Below the pieces are notes generated by a model. The model worked only from the letters and a program-made list of their open reading frames with translations, did not search any database and was not told where the DNA came from. The position numbers were made by a program, and so were the translations under genes. A stretch of 64,000 nt of DNA from Arthrobacter sp. SPG23 (GTDB lineage: Bacteria; Actinomycetota; Actinomycetes; Actinomycetales; Micrococcaceae): assembly GCF_000876655.1 (NCBI RefSeq), contig NZ_JYCN01000015.1, positions 124,001 to 188,000 of the forward strand. Direction: 5' to 3'. Below, piece by piece: positions 29,623-63,815 of this stretch. Position 1 is the first letter of the stretch; each line of letters starts with the position of its first letter.

Positions 29623-30007
29623 TCCGGCCGGCCAATATCCGCAGCCCGAACTTTCCATTGGTGGATTGCCGGAGCGGGGCCGGGTGCTGTGCCGTGGCTT
29701 CATTGAGTCCGTGACGTACGTTCCGGCCACCCAGGTTGCCACGTTCACCGCGATCGTCATGGACCACGACCTCCCGCGCACCAAGCGCGGACCTGCCCCG
29801 GCCGGCACGGAACCGCGGTCGTCCCGGAAACCCGGGGGACCGGGCCGGCGCGACCGGCTGCGGGTCGTGTGGCTCGGCCGGCGGCGGGTACCCGGCGTCG
29901 ACCCTGGGTGTGAACTCAGGCTGGAAGGCATGCTGACTGTGCGCGACGGTCTTCCCACCATGTTCAACCCCCGCTACGAGATACTGTCCCGCCAGGAGAA
30001 CCAATGA
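29615..30007 (+). CDS. OB-fold nucleic acid-binding domain protein
   Basis: 130 residues starting at TTG 29615, inside the end of DUF3710 (ATTGGCTGA overlap). The frame is open far upstream, but conserved sequence begins after this point (RGRVLCRGFIESVTYVPATQ). It contains beta-strand-like segments with RLRVVWLGRRRVPGVDPG, the shape of a small OB-fold as in mycobacterial Rv2694c-type proteins. The nucleic acid target is unknown. It overlaps the DUF3159 gene by four bases (ATGA). Confidence 0.75.
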   Translation: MADPAGQYPQPELSIGGLPERGRVLCRGFIESVTYVPATQVATFTAIVMDHDLPRTKRGPAPAGTEPRSSRKPGGPGRRDRLRVVWLGRRRVPGVDPGCELRLEGMLTVRDGLPTMFNPRYEILSRQENQ

Positions 30008-30789
30008 CGACGTCCGAGAACCCGGATCCCGCAGCCAGGCCCGGCCAGCCGCGCCCCACTCCGGAGTCGCCGTCAGTTGCCGACCTCGCGGAAGGCTACG
30101 CCGCGAAGGCCGGCCTGCACCGCTCGGAGGACGGCAGTATCGACGTGCTCAAGAGTGCGGGCGGTGTCCAGGGCATCGCGGAGAGCATCGTCCCCGGACT
30201 TGTCTTCCTCGTGGCCTTCACCGTCACCCGGGAGCTCACCCTGTCCCTGGTAGGCGCCCTGGCTGCGGCCGCTGCCTTCACGGTTGCCCGCCTCGTCCAA
30301 CGCCGCCCGCTGACCCAGGCGCTGGCGGGGATCGCCGGCGTCGGAATTTCCGCGTGGCTTGCGAACACCACCGGCAAGGCTGAGAACTTCTATGTCCTCG
30401 GGTTCTTCACCAATGCCGCGTACATAGCCGGCATGGTGCTGTCCATTGCGCTCCGCTGGCCCATTGCGGGCCTGCTGTTCGGCTTTATCCGGAACGAGGG
30501 CCTGGACTGGCGCAAGGACCCGGCCCGGGTCCGGGCCTACCGCCTGGGCACCTGGGTGATCGTCGGCGTCCTGGCCCTGCGGCTCCTCGTTCAGGTGCCG
30601 CTGTACCTCCTCGGCGAGCAGGGCCTGGCCGGTCTTGCCACCACACGGCTTCTGATGGGGGCGCCGCTGTACATCCTGGGCATCTGGGTGGCGTGGCTCA
30701 TCACCAAGCCCGTTGTGCCGGCGGAGCCGCCGGCTCCGTCACCGCCGCCGGGTGCACCGTCACAGCCGGGTCCTCCGCCGCTGCCTTAG
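30004..30789 (+). CDS. DUF3159 membrane protein
   Basis: 261 residues. A soluble N-terminus (~60 residues, with GVQGIAESIVPGLVFL beginning the membrane part) and about six transmembrane helices; the Pro-rich tail APSPPPGAPSQPGPPPLP ends it. An actinobacterial family of unknown function, regularly beside TrkA genes. It is co-directional with dut, DUF3710 and the OB gene, and convergent with the TrkA genes. Confidence 0.85.
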   Translation: MTTSENPDPAARPGQPRPTPESPSVADLAEGYAAKAGLHRSEDGSIDVLKSAGGVQGIAESIVPGLVFLVAFTVTRELTLSLVGALAAAAAFTVARLVQRRPLTQALAGIAGVGISAWLANTTGKAENFYVLGFFTNAAYIAGMVLSIALRWPIAGLLFGFIRNEGLDWRKDPARVRAYRLGTWVIVGVLALRLLVQVPLYLLGEQGLAGLATTRLLMGAPLYILGIWVAWLITKPVVPAEPPAPSPPPGAPSQPGPPPLP

Positions 30790-30801
30790 CCGGCGGAACG
30801 T

Positions 30802-31561
30802 TCAGCCGTCGAAGCCGTCGTCCTCCGGCGCCTGCTGTTCCTGCCGGGCGGGGAGGTGGCCTTCTTCCCCCGCGGCCTGCTCCGATTCCCGGTCCTGCTG
30901 CTGCTCGGGGGGAGAGCAGCGCCCTGAGGTCGTCTTCGGCGGCGATGGTGGTGACGAAAAACAGTTCGTCACCGCCGTCGAGCACGTCGTCCCGGCTGGG
31001 AGTGATGGGGGCCTGGTCCCGCAGGATCGCCACCAGCGTTGAGTCTTCGGGCCAGTCGATGTCTCCTACAGTGAGTCCGATGACGTGTGAGTCGTGGGGA
31101 ACGGTGAATTCGACAAGGGACGAAACCCCGGTCTGCAGGGTGAGCAGCCGGACGAGGTCGCCGATTTCCACCGCTTCCTCGACGAGTGCGGTCATGAGCT
31201 GGGGGGTGTTGACTGCGACGTCGACACCCCAGGAGTCGTTGAACATCCAGTCGTTCTTGGGGTTGTTGACGCGTCCCACGGTGCGTCCGACGCCGAACTC
31301 GGTCTTCGCCAGCAGGGACACCACCAGGTTGACCTTGTCGTCTCCTGTGGCTGAAACCACCACGTCGGCGTCGTCGAGTTTGGCGTCCTGGAGCGTGCTC
31401 AGCTCGCAGGCGTCGCCGACCAGCCAGTGCGCCCCGCGGAGCCCGCTGCGCCCGATCACTTCCGGCTTCAGGTCGATCAGCAGGATCTCGTGTTTGTGGG
31501 AAAGAAGCTCACGGGCGATCGAGGAACCGACGCTCCCTGCCCCGACGATAACGACTTTCAC
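30802..31561 (-). CDS. TrkA-family potassium uptake protein (CeoC-like), 3' end frameshifted
   Basis: N-terminal Rossmann/RCK_N fold (VVIVGAGSVGSSIARELL, GDACELSTLQDA, SATGDDKVNLVV) and a TrkA_C domain. The GTG start at 31561 directly follows the upstream TAA. As printed, the frame runs to 30701 and enters DUF3159 antisense with a basic, Pro/Arg-rich tail. Dropping one G of the G6 run at 30907-30912 instead gives an acidic, Gln-rich tail ending EDDGFDG at 30802, only 12 bases from the DUF3159 stop. I give that repaired end. The protein would gate a potassium transporter according to nucleotide binding. Confidence 0.85.
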
Positions 31562-32233
31562 TTACTGCTCCTTGGGTGGTTCTTTGGCAAGAATGTGGCC
31601 TACCTCTGCGCTGCGGTCCACGCGCAGCATGGCATGGACAGTGTCGCCCTCCTGGTAGGAGGTGCCGGGGCCGGGCAGCATCCCTTCGCCGAACCTGGTC
31701 AGGTAGGCAATCCGGATGTCGGCCACCTTCTCGATGGCGGCCAGCGGGTGCCCGATCCAGGCCGGGTCGAGGTCGATTTCGGCCAGGACCAACCGGCCTG
31801 AAGGCTCACGGAAGTCCCCGGCCAGGTGCTGTTCCGGCAGGATCCGGCGCAGCACCTGGTCCGCGCTCCAACGCACGGCCGCCACCGTGGGAATGCCCAG
31901 GCGCTGGTAGATCTCGGCGCGGCCGGGGTCGTAGATCCTGGCCACCACATGGGGCACGTGGAAAGTCTCGCGGGCCACCCGGGTGGCCAGAATGTTGGAG
32001 TTGTCACCGCTGGACACCGCGGCGAAGGCATAGGCCTCACTGACGCCGGCCTGCTTCAGGGTTTCGCGGTCGAACCCGACTCCGGTGACCTTCCGGCCGG
32101 AAAAACCGGTGCGGAGCCGGCGGAAGGCGCGGTCGTCCTGGTCGATGATGGCCACCGAATGGCCCGCATCCTCGAGGGTATGCGCCAGCGTTGCTCCCAC
32201 GCGGCCACAACCCATGATCACGAAGTGCGCCAC
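31562..32233 (-). CDS. TrkA-family potassium uptake protein (CeoB-like)
   Basis: 223 residues. RCK_N domain with the NAD-type loop VIMGCGRVGATLAHTLEDAG and TRVARETFHVPHVVARIYDP, then a TrkA_C domain (LVLAEIDLDPAWIGHPL). The frame is open to 32398, but the GTG at 32233 with AGGAGG six bases upstream starts the fold precisely. It is the first gene of the two-gene trkA unit. There is no TrkH/TrkG gene in the window; the nearest transporter is the divergent KimA-like permease. Confidence 0.9.
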   Translation of the reverse strand: MAHFVIMGCGRVGATLAHTLEDAGHSVAIIDQDDRAFRRLRTGFSGRKVTGVGFDRETLKQAGVSEAYAFAAVSSGDNSNILATRVARETFHVPHVVARIYDPGRAEIYQRLGIPTVAAVRWSADQVLRRILPEQHLAGDFREPSGRLVLAEIDLDPAWIGHPLAAIEKVADIRIAYLTRFGEGMLPGPGTSYQEGDTVHAMLRVDRSAEVGHILAKEPPKEQ

Positions 32234-32353
32234 CCGTGCCTCCTCAGTCTTTTTCCTGTTGCTGCGTAAGACTCTACCGGCCGTCCGGGCCGCCCGTTCC
32301 GGTGTCCGGCAGATACTGCGCGGCGTCGGCGGAGGCACCGGGCGGATCCTGTC

Positions 32354-32382
32354 ATGACATCGCGTCCGAATCAGACTAGCTT
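32354..32382 (+). promoter_or_regulatory. Leaderless promoter of the KimA-like permease
   Basis: -35 ATGACA (32354-32359), spacer of 17, -10 TAGCTT (32377-32382), then six bases to the GTG at 32389. This is one of the best complete promoters in the window. Confidence 0.65.
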
Positions 32383-32388
32383 TGTGGA

Positions 32389-34365
32389 GTGCTGACAATA
32401 TTGAATGCCGTTAAACGGGTTCTCGTCGGGCGGCCATTCCGCAATGACCGGCTCGCCCATACCTTGCTGCCAAAGCGGATCGCGCTTCCGATTTTCGCCT
32501 CCGACGCCCTGTCCTCGGTGGCCTACGCGCCCGACGAAATCCTCCTGACCCTGGCCCTGGCGGGCGTCAGCGCCGTGGCCTTCTCGCCCTGGGTGGGGCT
32601 GGCCGTCATGGTAGTGCTGTTGACCGTCGTCGCGTCCTACCGGCAGAATGTCCACGCCTACCCCTCCGGCGGCGGCGATTACGAGATCGCCAACGAAAAC
32701 CTGGGCAAGTTTGCCGGGCTCACGGTAGCGTCAGCGCTGCTGGTCGACTACGTCCTGACCGTTGCCGTGTCGATGTCCTCGGCCGCAGCCTATCTGACCA
32801 CCGCCGTGCCCTCGCTGCACGGCGAGCGGGCCCTCATTGCGACTATCGGCGTCATCATTCTGGCCCTGGTGAACCTTCGCGGCATCCGGGAGGCCGGCAG
32901 CGTGTTCGCCGTCCCCACGTACATCTTCATGGCCTCCATCCTCGGCATGACTGCCGTCGGCATCTTCCAGGCCCTCACAGGCCAGTTAGGCAAGGCGCCG
33001 TCGGCGGATTTCACGATCGTTCCGGCCGCCGGCTTCGACGAAGGGCTGGTGGGCCTGGCCGGAGCGTTCCTGTTGCTGCGGGCGTTCTCCTCGGGTGCCG
33101 CGGCGCTTACCGGCGTCGAAGCCATCAGCAACGGCGTGCCGAACTTCCGGAAACCCAAGAGCAAGAACGCCGCGACCACCTTGCTCATGCTGGGCGTCAT
33201 CGCCGCCTCCATGCTTGCCGGCATCATCTACCTGGCCAACGCCACCAAAGTGCACATTGTGCTGGACCCCGCCACGGAATTCCTGCTGGACGGGCAGCCC
33301 CTGCCCGAGGGCTACATCCAGAATCCGGCCATCAGCCAGATTGCCCAGACCATCTTCGGTGAAGGATCCATCCTTTTCTACGTGGTGGTCGCCGCCACCG
33401 GCGTGATCCTGGTGTTCGCGTCCAACACGGCCTTCAACGGCTTCCCGGTCCTGGGTTCGATCCTGGCCCAGGACGGCTACCTGCCCCGCCAGCTGCGCAC
33501 CCGCGGCGACCGGCTGGCCTTCAGCAACGGCGTCCTGGCCCTGGCCGCCGGAGCCCTCGTGTTGATCCTCGCCTTCGACGCCGACGTCACCAAACTCATC
33601 CAGCTGTACATTGTGGGTGTCTTCATCTCGTTCACGATGAGCCAGCTCGGCATGATCCGGCACTGGGGCCGGGAGCTGAAGCTGGCCAGGGACCCTGCCA
33701 TCAAGCTGCGCATGCTCAAGTCGCGCATCATCAACACGATCGGCTTCGGCATGACGGCGCTGGTCCTGGTGATCGTGCTGATCACCAAGTTTGAACAGGG
33801 GGCCTGGATCGCGCTGCTGGCGATGTTCGTGCTCTTCCTGATCATGTGGAGCATCCGCGCACACTACGACAACGTTGCCAAGGAACTGTCCGTGGACGAG
33901 GATTCCTCGCCCCGCGCCCTGCCGTCCCGCGTCCACGCCGTGCTGCTGGTTTCCCACGTCCGCAAGCCTGTGCTGCGGGCACTGGCATACGCCCGGGCAT
34001 CGCGGCCCTCGCGGCTTGACGCCATCACCGTGGACATCAACTCCGAAGAAACCGCACACACCCTGGCCGACTGGGAAAAGCTCGAAATTCCGGTGCCGCT
34101 GACGGTCCTCGCCAGCCCGTACCGGGAAACGGTGACCCCCATCATGGAATACGTAAAGAACATGCGGCGGGATTCGCCCCGTGACCTGATCGTGGTCTAC
34201 ATCCCCGAGTACGTGGTGGGTAAATGGTGGGAACAGTTGGTCCATAACCAGACGGCCCTGCGGATCAAAACCCGCCTCCATTTCGAGCCGGGAGTCATGG
34301 TTGCCAGTGTGCCCTGGCAACTGAAATCGTCCGAAGAAGCCAAGAAATTGCAGGATATCCAATGA
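32389..34365 (+). CDS. APC-superfamily permease, KimA-like potassium importer
   Basis: 658 residues, about twelve transmembrane helices then a ~150-residue cytosolic domain. From memory, these motifs match Bacillus subtilis KimA (YdaO): SDALSSVAYAPDEIL, SYRQNVHAYPSGGGDYE, LLVDYVLTVAVS, AFSSGAAALTGVEAISNGVP and LRTRGDRLAFSNG. KimA is a high-affinity, proton-coupled K+ importer. The cytosolic tail (VHAVLLVSHVRKPVLRALAY, VVYIPEYVVGKWWEQLVHNQ) resembles a USP-like fold. It is divergent from two TrkA genes and overlaps the methyltransferase by four bases. Confidence 0.85.
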   Translation: MLTILNAVKRVLVGRPFRNDRLAHTLLPKRIALPIFASDALSSVAYAPDEILLTLALAGVSAVAFSPWVGLAVMVVLLTVVASYRQNVHAYPSGGGDYEIANENLGKFAGLTVASALLVDYVLTVAVSMSSAAAYLTTAVPSLHGERALIATIGVIILALVNLRGIREAGSVFAVPTYIFMASILGMTAVGIFQALTGQLGKAPSADFTIVPAAGFDEGLVGLAGAFLLLRAFSSGAAALTGVEAISNGVPNFRKPKSKNAATTLLMLGVIAASMLAGIIYLANATKVHIVLDPATEFLLDGQPLPEGYIQNPAISQIAQTIFGEGSILFYVVVAATGVILVFASNTAFNGFPVLGSILAQDGYLPRQLRTRGDRLAFSNGVLALAAGALVLILAFDADVTKLIQLYIVGVFISFTMSQLGMIRHWGRELKLARDPAIKLRMLKSRIINTIGFGMTALVLVIVLITKFEQGAWIALLAMFVLFLIMWSIRAHYDNVAKELSVDEDSSPRALPSRVHAVLLVSHVRKPVLRALAYARASRPSRLDAITVDINSEETAHTLADWEKLEIPVPLTVLASPYRETVTPIMEYVKNMRRDSPRDLIVVYIPEYVVGKWWEQLVHNQTALRIKTRLHFEPGVMVASVPWQLKSSEEAKKLQDIQ

Positions 34366-35724
34366 GCCCCGAGACCCAGACCCGCACGCACGCCGAACTC
34401 GTAGTGGACATCGGGCCCATCGCCCACGGCGGCCACTGCGTTGCCCGCCACGAAGGCCGCGTGGTTTTTGTCCGCCACGCCATTCCTGGCGAAAAGGTCC
34501 GGATCCGCCTGACGGACGCGGGCGAGGACTCAAATGTTTTGGCGCGCCGACGTCGTGGAAGTTCTCGAGGCGTCGCCGGACCGCCTGGCCCATTTCTGGC
34601 ACGTGGCCGATTCCCTGCGGTCCTGGTCCCATGGCCACCCTCCGGTAGGCGGTGCAGAGCTGGGCCACGTATCACTTGGACGCCAGCGAAGCCTCAAGGC
34701 GGACGTCCTGGCGGAACAGCTGAAGCGGCTCGCCGGCGTCGAACGTGTCACGGAGGTGGAAGCTGTCGGCGCGGCCGCCGCCACAGGCGACCACAGCCCT
34801 GGTGCGCCCGGTCTGGGCTGGCGCACACGGGCCAGCTTTGCCGTGACACCCGCAGGCAAGCTGGGCATGCACGCCCACCGGTCCGACCAGGTCATTGCCA
34901 TCCGCGAGATGCCATTGGCCGTGTCCGGCATCAACGACCTCAGGCTCTGGGACATCGACCTCACGGGCATTGAGCGCGTCGAAGTGGCAGCCCCCGCCAA
35001 CGGATCGCGCGCGCTGGTGCTGCTGGCCCCGGCTGCAGGCACCCGCGCAAAGCGCCTCAGCGGGATCCTTGCCCAGCTGCCCGACGACGTCTCGGTGGCC
35101 AGCTTCGATCCGGCCAAGGGGGAGGCGCTGCAGCTCCGCGGACGCACGTGGGTGCAGGAGTCGGCCGCCGGGCACGAGTTCCGGGTCACGGGGGAGGGCT
35201 TCTGGCAGATCCACCGGGATGCTCCGGAGACACTCGTCGGGGCGGTGAAGGGATTCCTGCGCGACGGCGGGTACCTGGAGCCCGGCGCGGTGGTTGCGGA
35301 CCTGTATGCCGGGGCGGGCCTGTTCACCGCCGCACTCGCGGACGCCGTGGGCGTGACCGGCTCCGTGCTGTCCGTGGAGGGTGCCCCCGGCACCAGCCGC
35401 GACGCGCGGAAGAACCTGCACGAGGCGCCGCAGGTGGAGATCGTGCAGGGACGCGTGGAGCGCGTCCTGCGCCAGAAGCCCCGTAACTTCGATGCCCTGG
35501 TGCTGGACCCGCCCCGTGCCGGCGCGGGCAAGGCAGTGGTCAGCCAGCTGATGGCGGCAGGTCCCCGGGCCGTCGCCTACGTCTCCTGCGATCCGGCGTC
35601 GTTCGCCCGGGACCTGGGGTACTTCCGGCAGGGAGGCTGGCAGCTCGCGGGGTTGCGGGCGTTCGATCTGTATCCGCACACGCACCACATGGAGACAGTG
35701 GCGTTGCTGACGCCCCCGGCCTGA
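34362..35724 (+). CDS. TRAM-domain RNA (uracil-5-)methyltransferase, TrmA/RlmCD type, with one frameshift
   Basis: The first frame (from ATG 34362, overlapping the permease stop) encodes a TRAM domain: VVDIGPIAHGGHCVARHEGR, VVFVRHAIPGEKVRIRLTD. The second frame (from ~34534) encodes the rest: EGFWQIHRDAPETLV, SAM-binding VADLYAGAGLFTAALA, catalytic LDPPRAGAGKAVV and AYVSCDPASFARDL with the nucleophile Cys. Removing one base around 34530-34540 (near AAATGTTTT) joins them as ~453 residues, the normal family size. It would methylate uridine in tRNA or rRNA. The same permease-methyltransferase pair exists in mycobacteria. Confidence 0.85.
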
Positions 35725-62877: not shown

Positions 62878-62952
62878 TGGTGGGCGATACTGGGATCGAA
62901 CCAGTGACCTCTTCCGTGTCAGGGAAGCGCGCTACCGCTGCGCCAATCGCCC
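62878..62952 (-). tRNA. tRNA-Val (GAC), copy 1
   Basis: Acceptor GGGCGAT, T-arm GGTTCGATCC, anticodon loop CTGACAC with anticodon GAC. The CCA tail is encoded (62878-62880). Identical to the copy at 63118. Confidence 0.93.
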
Positions 62953-62989
62953 GCAACCGGAAGGATCCGGAGTGGAATTAAAGAAAGAG

Positions 62990-63062
<73 letters not shown>

Positions 63063-63117
63063 ATTCAGTCCATGCCGGCCGGGCCGGTGGTACTTCAACA
63101 AGCAAGTTGCCTTGCTC

Positions 63118-63192
63118 TGGTGGGCGATACTGGGATCGAACCAGTGACCTCTTCCGTGTCAGGGAAGCGCGCTACCGCTGCGCCAATCGCCC
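63118..63192 (-). tRNA. tRNA-Val (GAC), copy 2
   Basis: Same sequence as the copy at 62878, including the encoded CCA (63118-63120); anticodon GAC. Confidence 0.93.
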
Positions 63193-63233
63193 AAATGTTC
63201 TCCGGGATTAACCGGATACCAAGGTTTTCACCG

Positions 63234-63304
63234 AGGTGGGTACGGGATTCGAACCCGTGTATACGGCTTTGCAGGCCGCTGCCTCGCCTCTCGGCCAACC
63301 CACC
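63234..63304 (-). tRNA. tRNA-Cys (GCA)
   Basis: Acceptor GGTGGGT; anticodon loop CTGCAAA gives anticodon GCA; T-arm GGTTCGAATCC. No encoded CCA. Single copy in this window. Confidence 0.93.
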
Positions 63305-63350
63305 GTGTAAGCCAGGTTCCGAAAAACCTTCGCCATGACAGTGTCCTGCG

Positions 63351-63423
<73 letters not shown>

Positions 63424-63740
63424 ATTATTGTCAGCATTTCCGTGCCGCATTCGGCATTTCCTCGCGTTCCAACGAGTAAGAACTCTATAGGAGGTTCAGG
63501 GAACTTACAAATCGGGGCGTCGTCATCTGCTCCGGATGGCCCCGCTTCCTTGAAATCTAGGGGATTTTCCTAATTACAGATGTGTAATTCGGCGCTGGCG
63601 ACGCGTCGGTTGTCCCTTCCGGGAAGTTTCGACGGCCGCCGGCGGGCGGACCCTCCGGCGACGCAATCCGGGGCCGGAGGGGCGCGGAGGCCTTCGATTT
63701 TCCAAATAGCGTCGGGGTGGGCTAGCATTCAATGGCATTG
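63424..63740. promoter_or_regulatory. Intergenic region between the two tRNA units
   Basis: 317 bp with no convincing ORF. On minus, TATAGA (63489-63484) with TTTGTA 16 bases upstream (63511-63506) is a likely promoter of the Gly-Cys-Val-Gly-Val tRNA unit. An 18-bp inverted repeat AATTACA-GATG-TGTAATT lies at 63572-63589 in an AT-rich patch. On plus, TAGCAT (63723-63728) is a likely -10 for tRNA-Val (CAC). Confidence 0.5.
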
Positions 63741-63815
63741 GGGCGATTGGCGCAGTGGTAGCGCGCTTCGTTCACACCGAAGAGGTCACTGGTTCGAACC
63801 CAGTATCGCCCACCA
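63741..63815 (+). tRNA. tRNA-Val (CAC)
   Basis: Acceptor GGGCGAT, anticodon loop TTCACAC with anticodon CAC, T-arm GGTTCGAACC, encoded CCA at 63813-63815. It differs from the GAC copies mainly in the anticodon arm. Confidence 0.93.

What the first reader, a model, noticed from the sequence alone, without database searches (positions are those of the whole stretch)
30802..34365. TrkA pair beside a KimA-like importer: candidate potassium system without TrkH
Two soluble RCK proteins (CeoB/CeoC type) are divergent to a permease carrying motifs that, from memory, match B. subtilis KimA. No TrkH/TrkG channel is in the window. Mycobacteria keep the same gene order. Inference: the RCK pair gates the KimA-like importer, a different partnership from classic Trk-TrkA; the permease's cytosolic domain may be the docking site or a c-di-AMP site.
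Basis: partly seen in the sequence, partly recalled or inferred. Interest (0 to 1): 0.6.

Follow-up and report, generated by a model that had tools for sequence, protein, structure and literature searches.

The report
Potassium sensor pair beside KimA importer
In many soil and related bacteria two small potassium-sensing proteins, usually assumed to serve a channel, sit beside a different kind of potassium importer, and comparison of many genomes suggests that they form one system with it; this gives a testable candidate for a missing membrane partner.

Summary
In detail: two single-RCK TrkA-type proteins (CeoB, CeoC) are divergent to a true KimA homologue (E 4.8e-115 to B. subtilis KimA; ion-site residues intact). 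"Without TrkH" is wrong for this genome: it holds a KtrAB and an orphan TrkH on other contigs. In 118 genomes of the class, CeoC is in 113, KimA in 106, TrkH in 39; 43 of 45 TrkH genes have a KtrA beside them; CeoC and KimA are divergent neighbours in 89. In other classes of the phylum similar RCK pairs adjoin KimA in divergent and in co-directional order, and the class's CeoC nests among KimA-partnered RCKs, mostly apart from TrkH-partnered ones. Against an exclusive partnership: CeoBC stays where KimA has left the locus (20 genomes, 4 more undecided at contig ends) or has lost its essential ion-site Asp (15 Micrococcaceae loci). By its residues c-di-AMP is likelier to act on KimA than on the RCK pair. 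Unexpectedly, related RCK pairs also follow Na,K-ATPase-like P-type pumps. No binding or gating is shown; all is comparative inference.

The parts
30701..31561 (-). CeoB: single RCK protein (RCK_N + RCK_C); annotated ORF leaves the frame of its relatives after about residue 218
   Evidence: Pfam TrkA_N 5e-25, TrkA_C 2.2e-15; PDB relatives TrkA 4g65 3.1e-31 and TM1088B 3l4b_C 6.5e-25
30802..30912 (-). neighbouring frame that carries the acidic CeoB tail ending DDGFDG-stop, conserved in Arthrobacter-group relatives
   Evidence: frames printed; tails of relatives
31562..32233 (-). CeoC: second RCK protein, GTG start with a GGAGG upstream
   Evidence: TrkA_N 1.2e-24; alignments A1/A2; start seen; model pLDDT 85, best PDB match two-subunit RCK ring 3l4b
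32354..32382 (+). promoter-like ATGACA - 17 - TAGCTT, 6 bases before the KimA GTG: perhaps a leaderless kimA transcript
   Evidence: ATGACA and a TA(G/A)CTT at this place in 19 of 22 Micrococcaceae sequences, not in L153, L161, L163 (output cut in the middle); no Rfam match in the window but six tRNAs; reading as promoter is inference
32389..34365 (+). KimA-like K+/H+ symporter of the KUP family, 658 aa, membrane part plus cytosolic domain
   Evidence: phmmer 4.8e-115 to 6s3k; ion-site residues D39 Y46 D120 T124 E244 Y407 and c-di-AMP-site residues R367 H619 N620 Q621 kept; Foldseek best 8b70 5.9e-35
30004..30789 (+). DUF3159 membrane protein, convergent neighbour of CeoB (considered and rejected as partner)
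   Evidence: Pfam PF11361 3e-62; matched in 113 of 118 genomes, also in the 3 f4 genomes that lack CeoC

Best explanation
CeoB and CeoC form a two-subunit RCK assembly that binds nucleotides and regulates K+ uptake by the KimA-type K+/H+ symporter encoded divergently beside them. It is a Trk-like control ring whose usual membrane partner in this lineage is KimA, not TrkH. c-di-AMP most likely inhibits KimA directly at its own cytosolic site, so KimA would be under two controls: a nucleotide or energy signal through CeoBC, and c-di-AMP. The pair also serves, or can switch to, other K+ uptake proteins, because it survives where KimA is gone. Shown by sequence: identity of the proteins, residues, gene order, phyletic pattern, clustering by partner. 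Inferred: physical contact, gating, ligands, direction of control.
For: KimA identity and intact ion site. CeoC in 113, KimA (E 1e-40 or better) in 106, TrkH in 39 of 118 class genomes; divergent adjacency in 89 of 118, in 32 of 38 families; 77 of 79 TrkH-less genomes have CeoC, 74 of those 77 KimA. 43 of 45 TrkH genes have a KtrA beside them (two tandem TrkH of one genome share one). Named loci: KimA on the opposite strand within the fetched flank of up to 6 kb in 77 of 80. In 39 RCK loci of other classes a transporter of a K+-related kind adjoins the pair (within about 0.75 kb) in 38: KimA 13, TrkH 12, P-type ATPase 11, APC permease 2, none 1; KimA is co-directional in 3 of its 13. Of 76 KimA matches in other classes, 23 lie within 1.5 kb of a listed RCK match, 16 divergent and 7 co-directional. 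CeoC tree: the class groups with 10 of 13 KimA-partnered rows (support 99/97); 5 label changes against a shuffled mean of 33.9. In family f14 a KimA of only 36% identity stands at the same place beside CeoBC (L070). M. tuberculosis transposon mutants in ceoB and Rv2690 share a survival phenotype (PMC12216072, passages); in one patient's last isolate changes in ceoC (25%) and Rv2690c (26%) appeared together (PMC11878324, passages; weak). CeoB and CeoC match the two subunits of an octameric RCK ring (3l4b).
Against: Of 24 class genomes with CeoC but no KimA match beside it, 20 show CeoC next to RlmD with KimA missing (4 undecided, at contig ends). In 15 Micrococcaceae loci the essential ion-site Asp is Ser/Asn and KimA is 1.35 times as far from outgroups as in Asp-keeping relatives, while CeoB (1.01) and CeoC (1.07) do not exceed the neighbours RlmD and DUF3710 (1.10 each); CeoC's small rise is significant there (Mann-Whitney p 5e-7), as are RlmD's and DUF3710's, CeoB's is not. 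So CeoBC constraint does not hang on KimA's ion site. 37 of 76 KimA matches of other classes have no listed RCK match on their contig and 16 only a distant one. KimA alone restored growth of an E. coli K+-uptake mutant (PMC6994465, passages), so an RCK partner is not needed for transport. KimA lies in a block whose other genes are also conserved, so adjacency within the class is weak evidence alone.
Confidence: 0.57

Rival explanations
1. CeoBC and KimA belong to the same physiology (K+ balance) but do not touch; CeoBC acts on some other, more constant target, and KimA stands beside it for joint regulation only.
For: CeoBC outlives KimA at the locus (20 genomes) and is not relaxed beyond its neighbours where KimA loses its ion-site Asp. 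KimA works alone in E. coli (PMC6994465).
Against: Co-directional KimA-CeoC-CeoB order and partner-wise clustering in other classes. No universal alternative partner was found among the few tried: DUF3159 does not track CeoC, KUP is in only 15 of 118 genomes.
Confidence: 0.25
2. Classic Trk: CeoBC gates a TrkH encoded elsewhere, in this genome the orphan TrkH on contig C19, which lacks a KtrA of its own.
For: The orphan TrkH exists; only three strong RCK_N matches are in the genome, CeoB, CeoC and KtrA. Of 8 genomes with CeoC and no KimA match, 5 have TrkH.
Against: 77 of 79 TrkH-less genomes carry CeoC; 43 of 45 TrkH have a KtrA beside them, including those of these 5 genomes; 16 of 17 TrkH-labelled RCK rows of other classes lie on the other side of the tree, moderately supported 90/76.
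Confidence: 0.13
3. Plain synteny: an old conserved block (DUF3710, OB-fold protein, DUF3159, ceoB, ceoC, kimA, rlmD, acnA) without functional link of CeoBC to KimA.
For: The neighbours are conserved too; RlmD and DUF3159 mostly stay where KimA leaves.
Against: In the loci of other classes the pair adjoins KimA in different orders and orientations, and the rest of the block was not found there by the same queries except one weak OB match (L240); shared transposon phenotype in M. tuberculosis.
Confidence: 0.05

Closest known systems
B. subtilis KimA (KUP family K+/H+ symporter, c-di-AMP inhibited)
   Same: Homology over nearly the whole length; K+ and proton residues and most c-di-AMP residues kept.
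   Different: In the passages read KimA of B. subtilis is not described with an RCK pair; here one is encoded beside it. Residues of the c-di-AMP cooperativity path differ (F565 is Ile605, F568 is Tyr608, R587 is Lys627, W592 is Phe632).
TrkA/TrkH and KtrA/KtrB systems
   Same: RCK proteins with the TrkA fold; best PDB matches are TrkA rings and TM1088, then KtrA/KtrC.
   Different: Two separate single-RCK proteins; the membrane neighbour is a KUP-family symporter, not TrkH; the genome's TrkH on C18 has its own KtrA.
Thermotoga TM1088A:TM1088B octameric two-subunit RCK ring (PDB 3l4b)
   Same: Two subunits; the CeoC profile hits TM1088A at 3e-29, CeoB hits TM1088B at 6.5e-25.
   Different: Structure of the assembly only; its membrane partner was not looked up here.
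M. tuberculosis 'Trk' system CeoBC and Rv2690c; Streptomyces venezuelae Vnz_27460 and Vnz_27465
   Same: Adjacency of ceoB and Rv2690 is in print; a review calls Vnz_27465 KimA-like and finds no TrkH or KtrB in S. venezuelae (PMC10117811, passages).
   Different: Three CeoBC papers searched for the words TrkH, TrkG, Rv2690 and KimA hold none of them. Neighbourhood of Vnz_27460 and Vnz_27465 is my inference from the tags.
CpeA-CpeB / KhtTU (RCK_C protein with K+/H+ antiporter)
   Same: Example of an RCK-type protein acting on a transporter that is not a channel (PMC10117811, passages); a likely CpeAB pair is also in this genome (RCK_C match; antiporter by my reading of the ORF).
   Different: RCK_C only, presumed efflux antiporter; CeoB/CeoC lack the Arg that the CpeA-like protein and KtrA of this genome have at the aligned place.

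Membership tests
KimA (KUP family) | whole-length homology including the cytosolic domain | tested here: met
   query 6-646 on 3-606 of 6s3k, E 4.8e-115; Foldseek 8b70 5.9e-35, TM 0.65/0.73, model mean pLDDT 72.6
KimA (KUP family) | K+ and H+ residues D36, Y43, T121, Y377, E233 | tested here: met
   D39, Y46, T124, Y407, E244 in the window protein (residues from PMC6994465, passages)
KimA (KUP family) | K+ transport | not testable with these tools
   needs a complementation assay
KimA (KUP family) | c-di-AMP pocket (R337, H579, N580, Q581, S582, P479) and lock residues Y118, N237 | tested here: inconclusive
   R367 H619 N620 Q621 Y121 N248 kept, S582 is Thr622 as reported for S. aureus KimA, P479 is Leu520; a DAC-domain protein is in the genome; binding not tested
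TrkA-type RCK pair | Rossmann RCK_N with GxGxxG and acidic residue, RCK_C | tested here: met
   RCK_C of CeoC by model only
TrkA-type RCK pair | ring of eight RCK domains that gates a transporter | not testable with these tools
Trk/Ktr system with TrkH/KtrB | TrkH/KtrB partner encoded with the RCK gene | tested here: not met
   no TrkH in the window; genomic TrkH on C18 has its own KtrA, that on C19 has no RCK match near
c-di-AMP-binding RCK_C proteins | Arg of the RCK_C c-di-AMP motif | tested here: not met
   CeoB and CeoC have Asp/Glu where KtrA and the CpeA-like protein of this genome have Arg (one four-sequence alignment; a loose form of the whole published motif matched none of the four, KtrA included); review reports by unpublished data that Vnz_27460 does not bind

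The most novel reading that the evidence does not exclude
The single-RCK pair is a portable K+-responsive control module that has been attached to transporters of three unrelated folds in Actinomycetota: TrkH channels, KimA-type symporters and Na,K-ATPase-like P-type pumps. CeoBC-KimA of the window is the KimA branch of this scheme, and RCK-controlled P2C-type pumps would be a further, so far unnoticed, kind of K+ transport system.
Probability: 0.45. Interest if true: 0.85.

Novelty: new variant of a known kind. Interest (0 to 1): 0.66.

Why it matters
CeoBC has been called the mycobacterial 'Trk system' and its deletion has clear phenotypes, but the three CeoBC papers I searched do not mention TrkH, TrkG, Rv2690 or KimA. 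A KimA homologue as partner would supply the membrane part, would show an RCK ring controlling an APC-fold symporter instead of a channel, and would join nucleotide sensing with c-di-AMP control on one importer. The broader pattern, one RCK pair beside three kinds of K+ transporters, can be tested in harmless laboratory strains.

Tried and rejected
DUF3159 as the membrane partner of CeoB: it is present in all 3 f4 genomes that lack CeoC (113 of 118 overall), so it does not track CeoBC. KUP as the general partner: only 15 of 118 genomes. A ydaO-type riboswitch before kimA: no Rfam match at the gathering threshold in the window except six tRNAs, and the likely promoter leaves no leader. Compensation of KimA loss by TrkH: 7 of 12 KimA-less against 32 of 106 KimA-bearing genomes, Fisher p 0.06, not corrected for kinship, so weak. 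Direct coupling analysis of KimA with CeoB/CeoC was not tried, the paired set being too small. A complex prediction could not be run. Kdp was not searched in the own genome. The first KimA tree script ended in an error at display and was repeated with fewer rows, 97 instead of 116. The intergenic alignment output was cut in the middle; 3 of its 22 rows (L153, L161, L163) do not share the promoter-like stretch.

Rows dropped before counts: the phylum list of RCK matches was itself cut by the tool, so RCK loci of weaker families (for example f48) were not sampled; 39 loci from 38 genomes were picked by hand to spread over families before their neighbours were seen. KimA proteins aligned over 560 residues or less were left out of the residue counts (134 kept). 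In the rate comparison some loci lacked a neighbour gene (for example AcnA in only 4 of the 15).

Full report
WHAT IS THERE. The window lies in a genome of the Arthrobacter/Pseudarthrobacter group (nearest named CeoC 96% identical, Arthrobacter sp. Y81). CeoB and CeoC are read on the minus strand, 30701-31561 and 31562-32233; the permease is divergent at 32389-34365. CeoB has TrkA_N and TrkA_C; CeoC has TrkA_N by Pfam, and its predicted structure (mean pLDDT 85.1) gives the two-subunit RCK ring TM1088A:TM1088B (3l4b) and TrkA rings as best matches (TM-scores by query length only about 0.5, probably because the two domains are set differently). CeoC's profile hits TM1088A at 3e-29 and CeoB hits TM1088B at 6.5e-25. 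The permease's only PDB relative by sequence at E 0.001 is B. subtilis KimA, E 4.8e-115.

KimA RESIDUES. Residue numbers of B. subtilis KimA come from passages of PMC6994465 and PMC10284832. D36, Y43, D117, T121, T230, E233, Y377 are D39, Y46, D120, T124, T241, E244, Y407 here. Of the c-di-AMP site, R337, H579, N580, Q581 are kept, S582 is Thr, P479 (a backbone contact) is Leu; Y118 and N237, which pass the inhibition on, are kept. The genome has one DAC-domain protein, and no riboswitch is found in the window. In CeoB and CeoC the aligned place of the RCK_C Arg is Asp/Glu, whereas KtrA and the CpeA-like protein of this genome have Arg; none of the four matched a loose form of the whole published motif. 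A review reports, from unpublished data, that the RCK_C domain of Vnz_27460 does not bind c-di-AMP (PMC10117811, passages); that this gene is the neighbour of the KimA-like Vnz_27465 I infer from the tags.

TrkH ELSEWHERE. The claim 'without TrkH' fails for the organism: two TrkH matches, one with KtrA directly after it (contig C18), one without an RCK match in 11 kb (C19).

CLASS SURVEY. In 118 genomes of the class: KimA-like in 106 (E 1e-40 or better, down to 33% identity), CeoC in 113, TrkH in 39. CeoC and a KimA are divergent neighbours in 89, unlinked in 16, CeoC alone in 8, KimA alone in 1, neither in 4. Of the 79 TrkH-less genomes 77 have CeoC, 74 have both, 62 have them adjacent. Family f6 (6 genomes, not named by the tool; I guess mycobacteria and kin) is adjacent in 6 of 6 and TrkH-less in 6 of 6. 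Of 45 TrkH genes found, 43 have a KtrA-type gene beside them (in G102 two tandem TrkH share one); the exceptions are the own C19 copy and one cut by a contig end. So TrkH in this class has its own regulator and CeoBC is not tied to it. Of 80 named loci fetched by CeoC, 77 have KimA on the opposite strand within the fetched flank, in a few 1.5 to 3.6 kb away; of the other 3, one is at a contig end, one on a 3.3-kb contig, one (Streptomyces sp. AV19) has no KimA within 6 kb.

RESULTS AGAINST. All 24 genomes with CeoC but no KimA match beside it were fetched. In 20 CeoC stands directly next to RlmD and only KimA is missing; in 4 a contig end lies by CeoC (L054, L056, L057, and L062, which still holds a KimA fragment) and loss is unproved. 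One clean case, G022, has neither KimA nor TrkH but a KUP; two others, G067 and G090, have none of the three and sit at contig ends. A second natural experiment: 15 Micrococcaceae loci (for example Arthrobacter subterraneus, Citricoccus, Micrococcus) have Ser or Asn for the essential D36. They form one clade in the KimA tree (SH-aLRT 91, quick method). The 14 of these genomes that could be searched all have TrkH, but so do the other Micrococcaceae searched (28 of 29 genomes, the exception a Streptomyces). Their KimA is 1.35 times as far from outgroups as in D36-keeping relatives; CeoB 1.01, CeoC 1.07, RlmD 1.10, DUF3710 1.10, DUF3159 0.95, AcnA 0.95 (4 loci); the rises of CeoC, RlmD and DUF3710 are significant by rank test, not corrected for kinship. 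Three Kocuria/Rothia loci keep D36 but have KimA at 1.43 to 1.93. So CeoBC is held by something beyond KimA's K+ transport, at least there. Three unlinked KimA copies in family f15 have Gly at this place.

OTHER CLASSES. With the CeoC alignment, 123 of 149 genomes of the phylum have a match (at least 12 of the 149 are of the own class). I fetched 39 RCK loci of other classes. Within about 0.75 kb the pair adjoins KimA in 13, TrkH in 12, a P-type ATPase in 11, APC permeases in 2, none of these in 1 (one locus, L236, has both TrkH and ATPase and is counted under ATPase; in L241 and L254 a small ORF lies between). KimA is divergent in 10 and co-directional, upstream of CeoC-CeoB, in 3 (L226, L228, L244); in L230 the order of CeoB and CeoC is exchanged. 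Counted from the KimA side, 23 of 76 KimA matches in other classes lie within 1.5 kb of a listed RCK match (16 divergent, 7 co-directional), 16 farther off on the same contig, and 37 have none on their contig. In a tree of 68 CeoC-like domains the 20 rows of the own class (one locus twice) form one group, nested with 10 of 13 KimA-partnered rows of other classes (99/97); 16 of 17 TrkH-labelled rows lie on the other side of the tree (90/76), together with the two tandem-RCK domains of L229, a locus labelled by its ATPase; the four labels need 5 changes, shuffled mean 33.9. The change of orientation together with the keeping of the partner argues for function rather than plain synteny.

P-TYPE ATPASES. 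All 11 ATPases stand directly before the RCK pair on the same strand. Six of the 11 were tested with Pfam or NCBIfam and are P2-type; the other five are named by similarity to these. The best NCBIfam model is TIGR01106 (Na,H/K ATPase alpha, E 1e-188 to 1e-199 in the five proteins scanned, one of them downstream of its RCK pair), below its cut-off. For one, the best PDB relatives are Na,K-ATPase alpha chains (1.8e-170), ahead of a bacterial Ca-ATPase (2e-159). PEGLLPT is in 11 of 11, DLGT(D/E) before the TM6 proline in 11 of 11, SNxPE in 8 of 11; I recall these as Na,K-ATPase-like. The two P-ATPases that lie farther from RCK genes (L238, L259) look SERCA-like. A search for P-type ATPase, TrkA, RCK domain and operon gave no paper; two further listings (15 of 106 listed; 73: 1) showed none that fits by title or abstract start.

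LITERATURE. M. tuberculosis CeoBC deletion affects K+ sensitivity and host colonisation (PMC6375644, passages). This paper, PMC12136442 and PMC13163235 do not hold the words TrkH, TrkG, Rv2690 or KimA. A transposon study reports ceoB and the adjacent Rv2690 with the same enhanced survival in rifampicin and counts both to the Trk system (PMC12216072, passages). That Rv2690c is the KimA homologue I infer from gene order; I did not test its sequence. In searches no listed title or abstract start proposes RCK control of KimA; most of these papers I did not open, searches list only 20 of 26 and 25 of 30, and the library lacks most subscription journals.

MECHANISM. Shown: protein families, residues, gene order, phyletic patterns. 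Inferred: CeoB and CeoC form a ring that binds nucleotides and touches KimA; c-di-AMP acts on KimA itself. The anatomy fits a double control of one importer. The pair's survival without KimA suggests that it can also serve another K+ uptake protein.

VERDICT.

Noticed in passing
window 30802-30912: CeoB of Arthrobacter-group relatives ends in an acidic tail with conserved DDGFDG; in the window the annotated ORF leaves that frame at a run of six C and reads on to 30701. A real frameshift or a sequencing error.
   Followed up: partly
window 34362-35724: The RlmD-like gene after kimA appears as two overlapping ORFs in different frames (34362-34973 and 34534-35724); with the CeoB case this hints at small indel errors in this assembly.
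   Followed up: no
   Followed up: partly
L162, L165-L171, L173, L175-L177, L181-L183: KimA beside CeoBC with the essential ion-site Asp replaced by Ser or Asn, still an open reading frame.
   Followed up: yes
L256, L257: Two tandem APC-type permeases upstream of an RCK pair on the same strand; the second one of L256 has a weak match to a universal stress protein at its end.
   Followed up: no
L059, L071, L072, L073: CeoB of family f28 ends in a short tail with Cys-Phe-Ile near the C-terminus (CFIAQ, CFIEQ, CFISQ).
   Followed up: no
L070: In family f14 the KimA beside CeoBC has only 36% identity to the window's and groups, on long branches, with copies otherwise found unlinked, as if replaced in place.
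   Followed up: partly
L081 3959-5640: Own genome: RCK_C protein followed by an ORF that reads like a cation/proton antiporter, a likely CpeAB pair.
   Followed up: no
window 62878-63815: Cluster of six tRNA genes (three Val, two Gly, one Cys).
   Followed up: no
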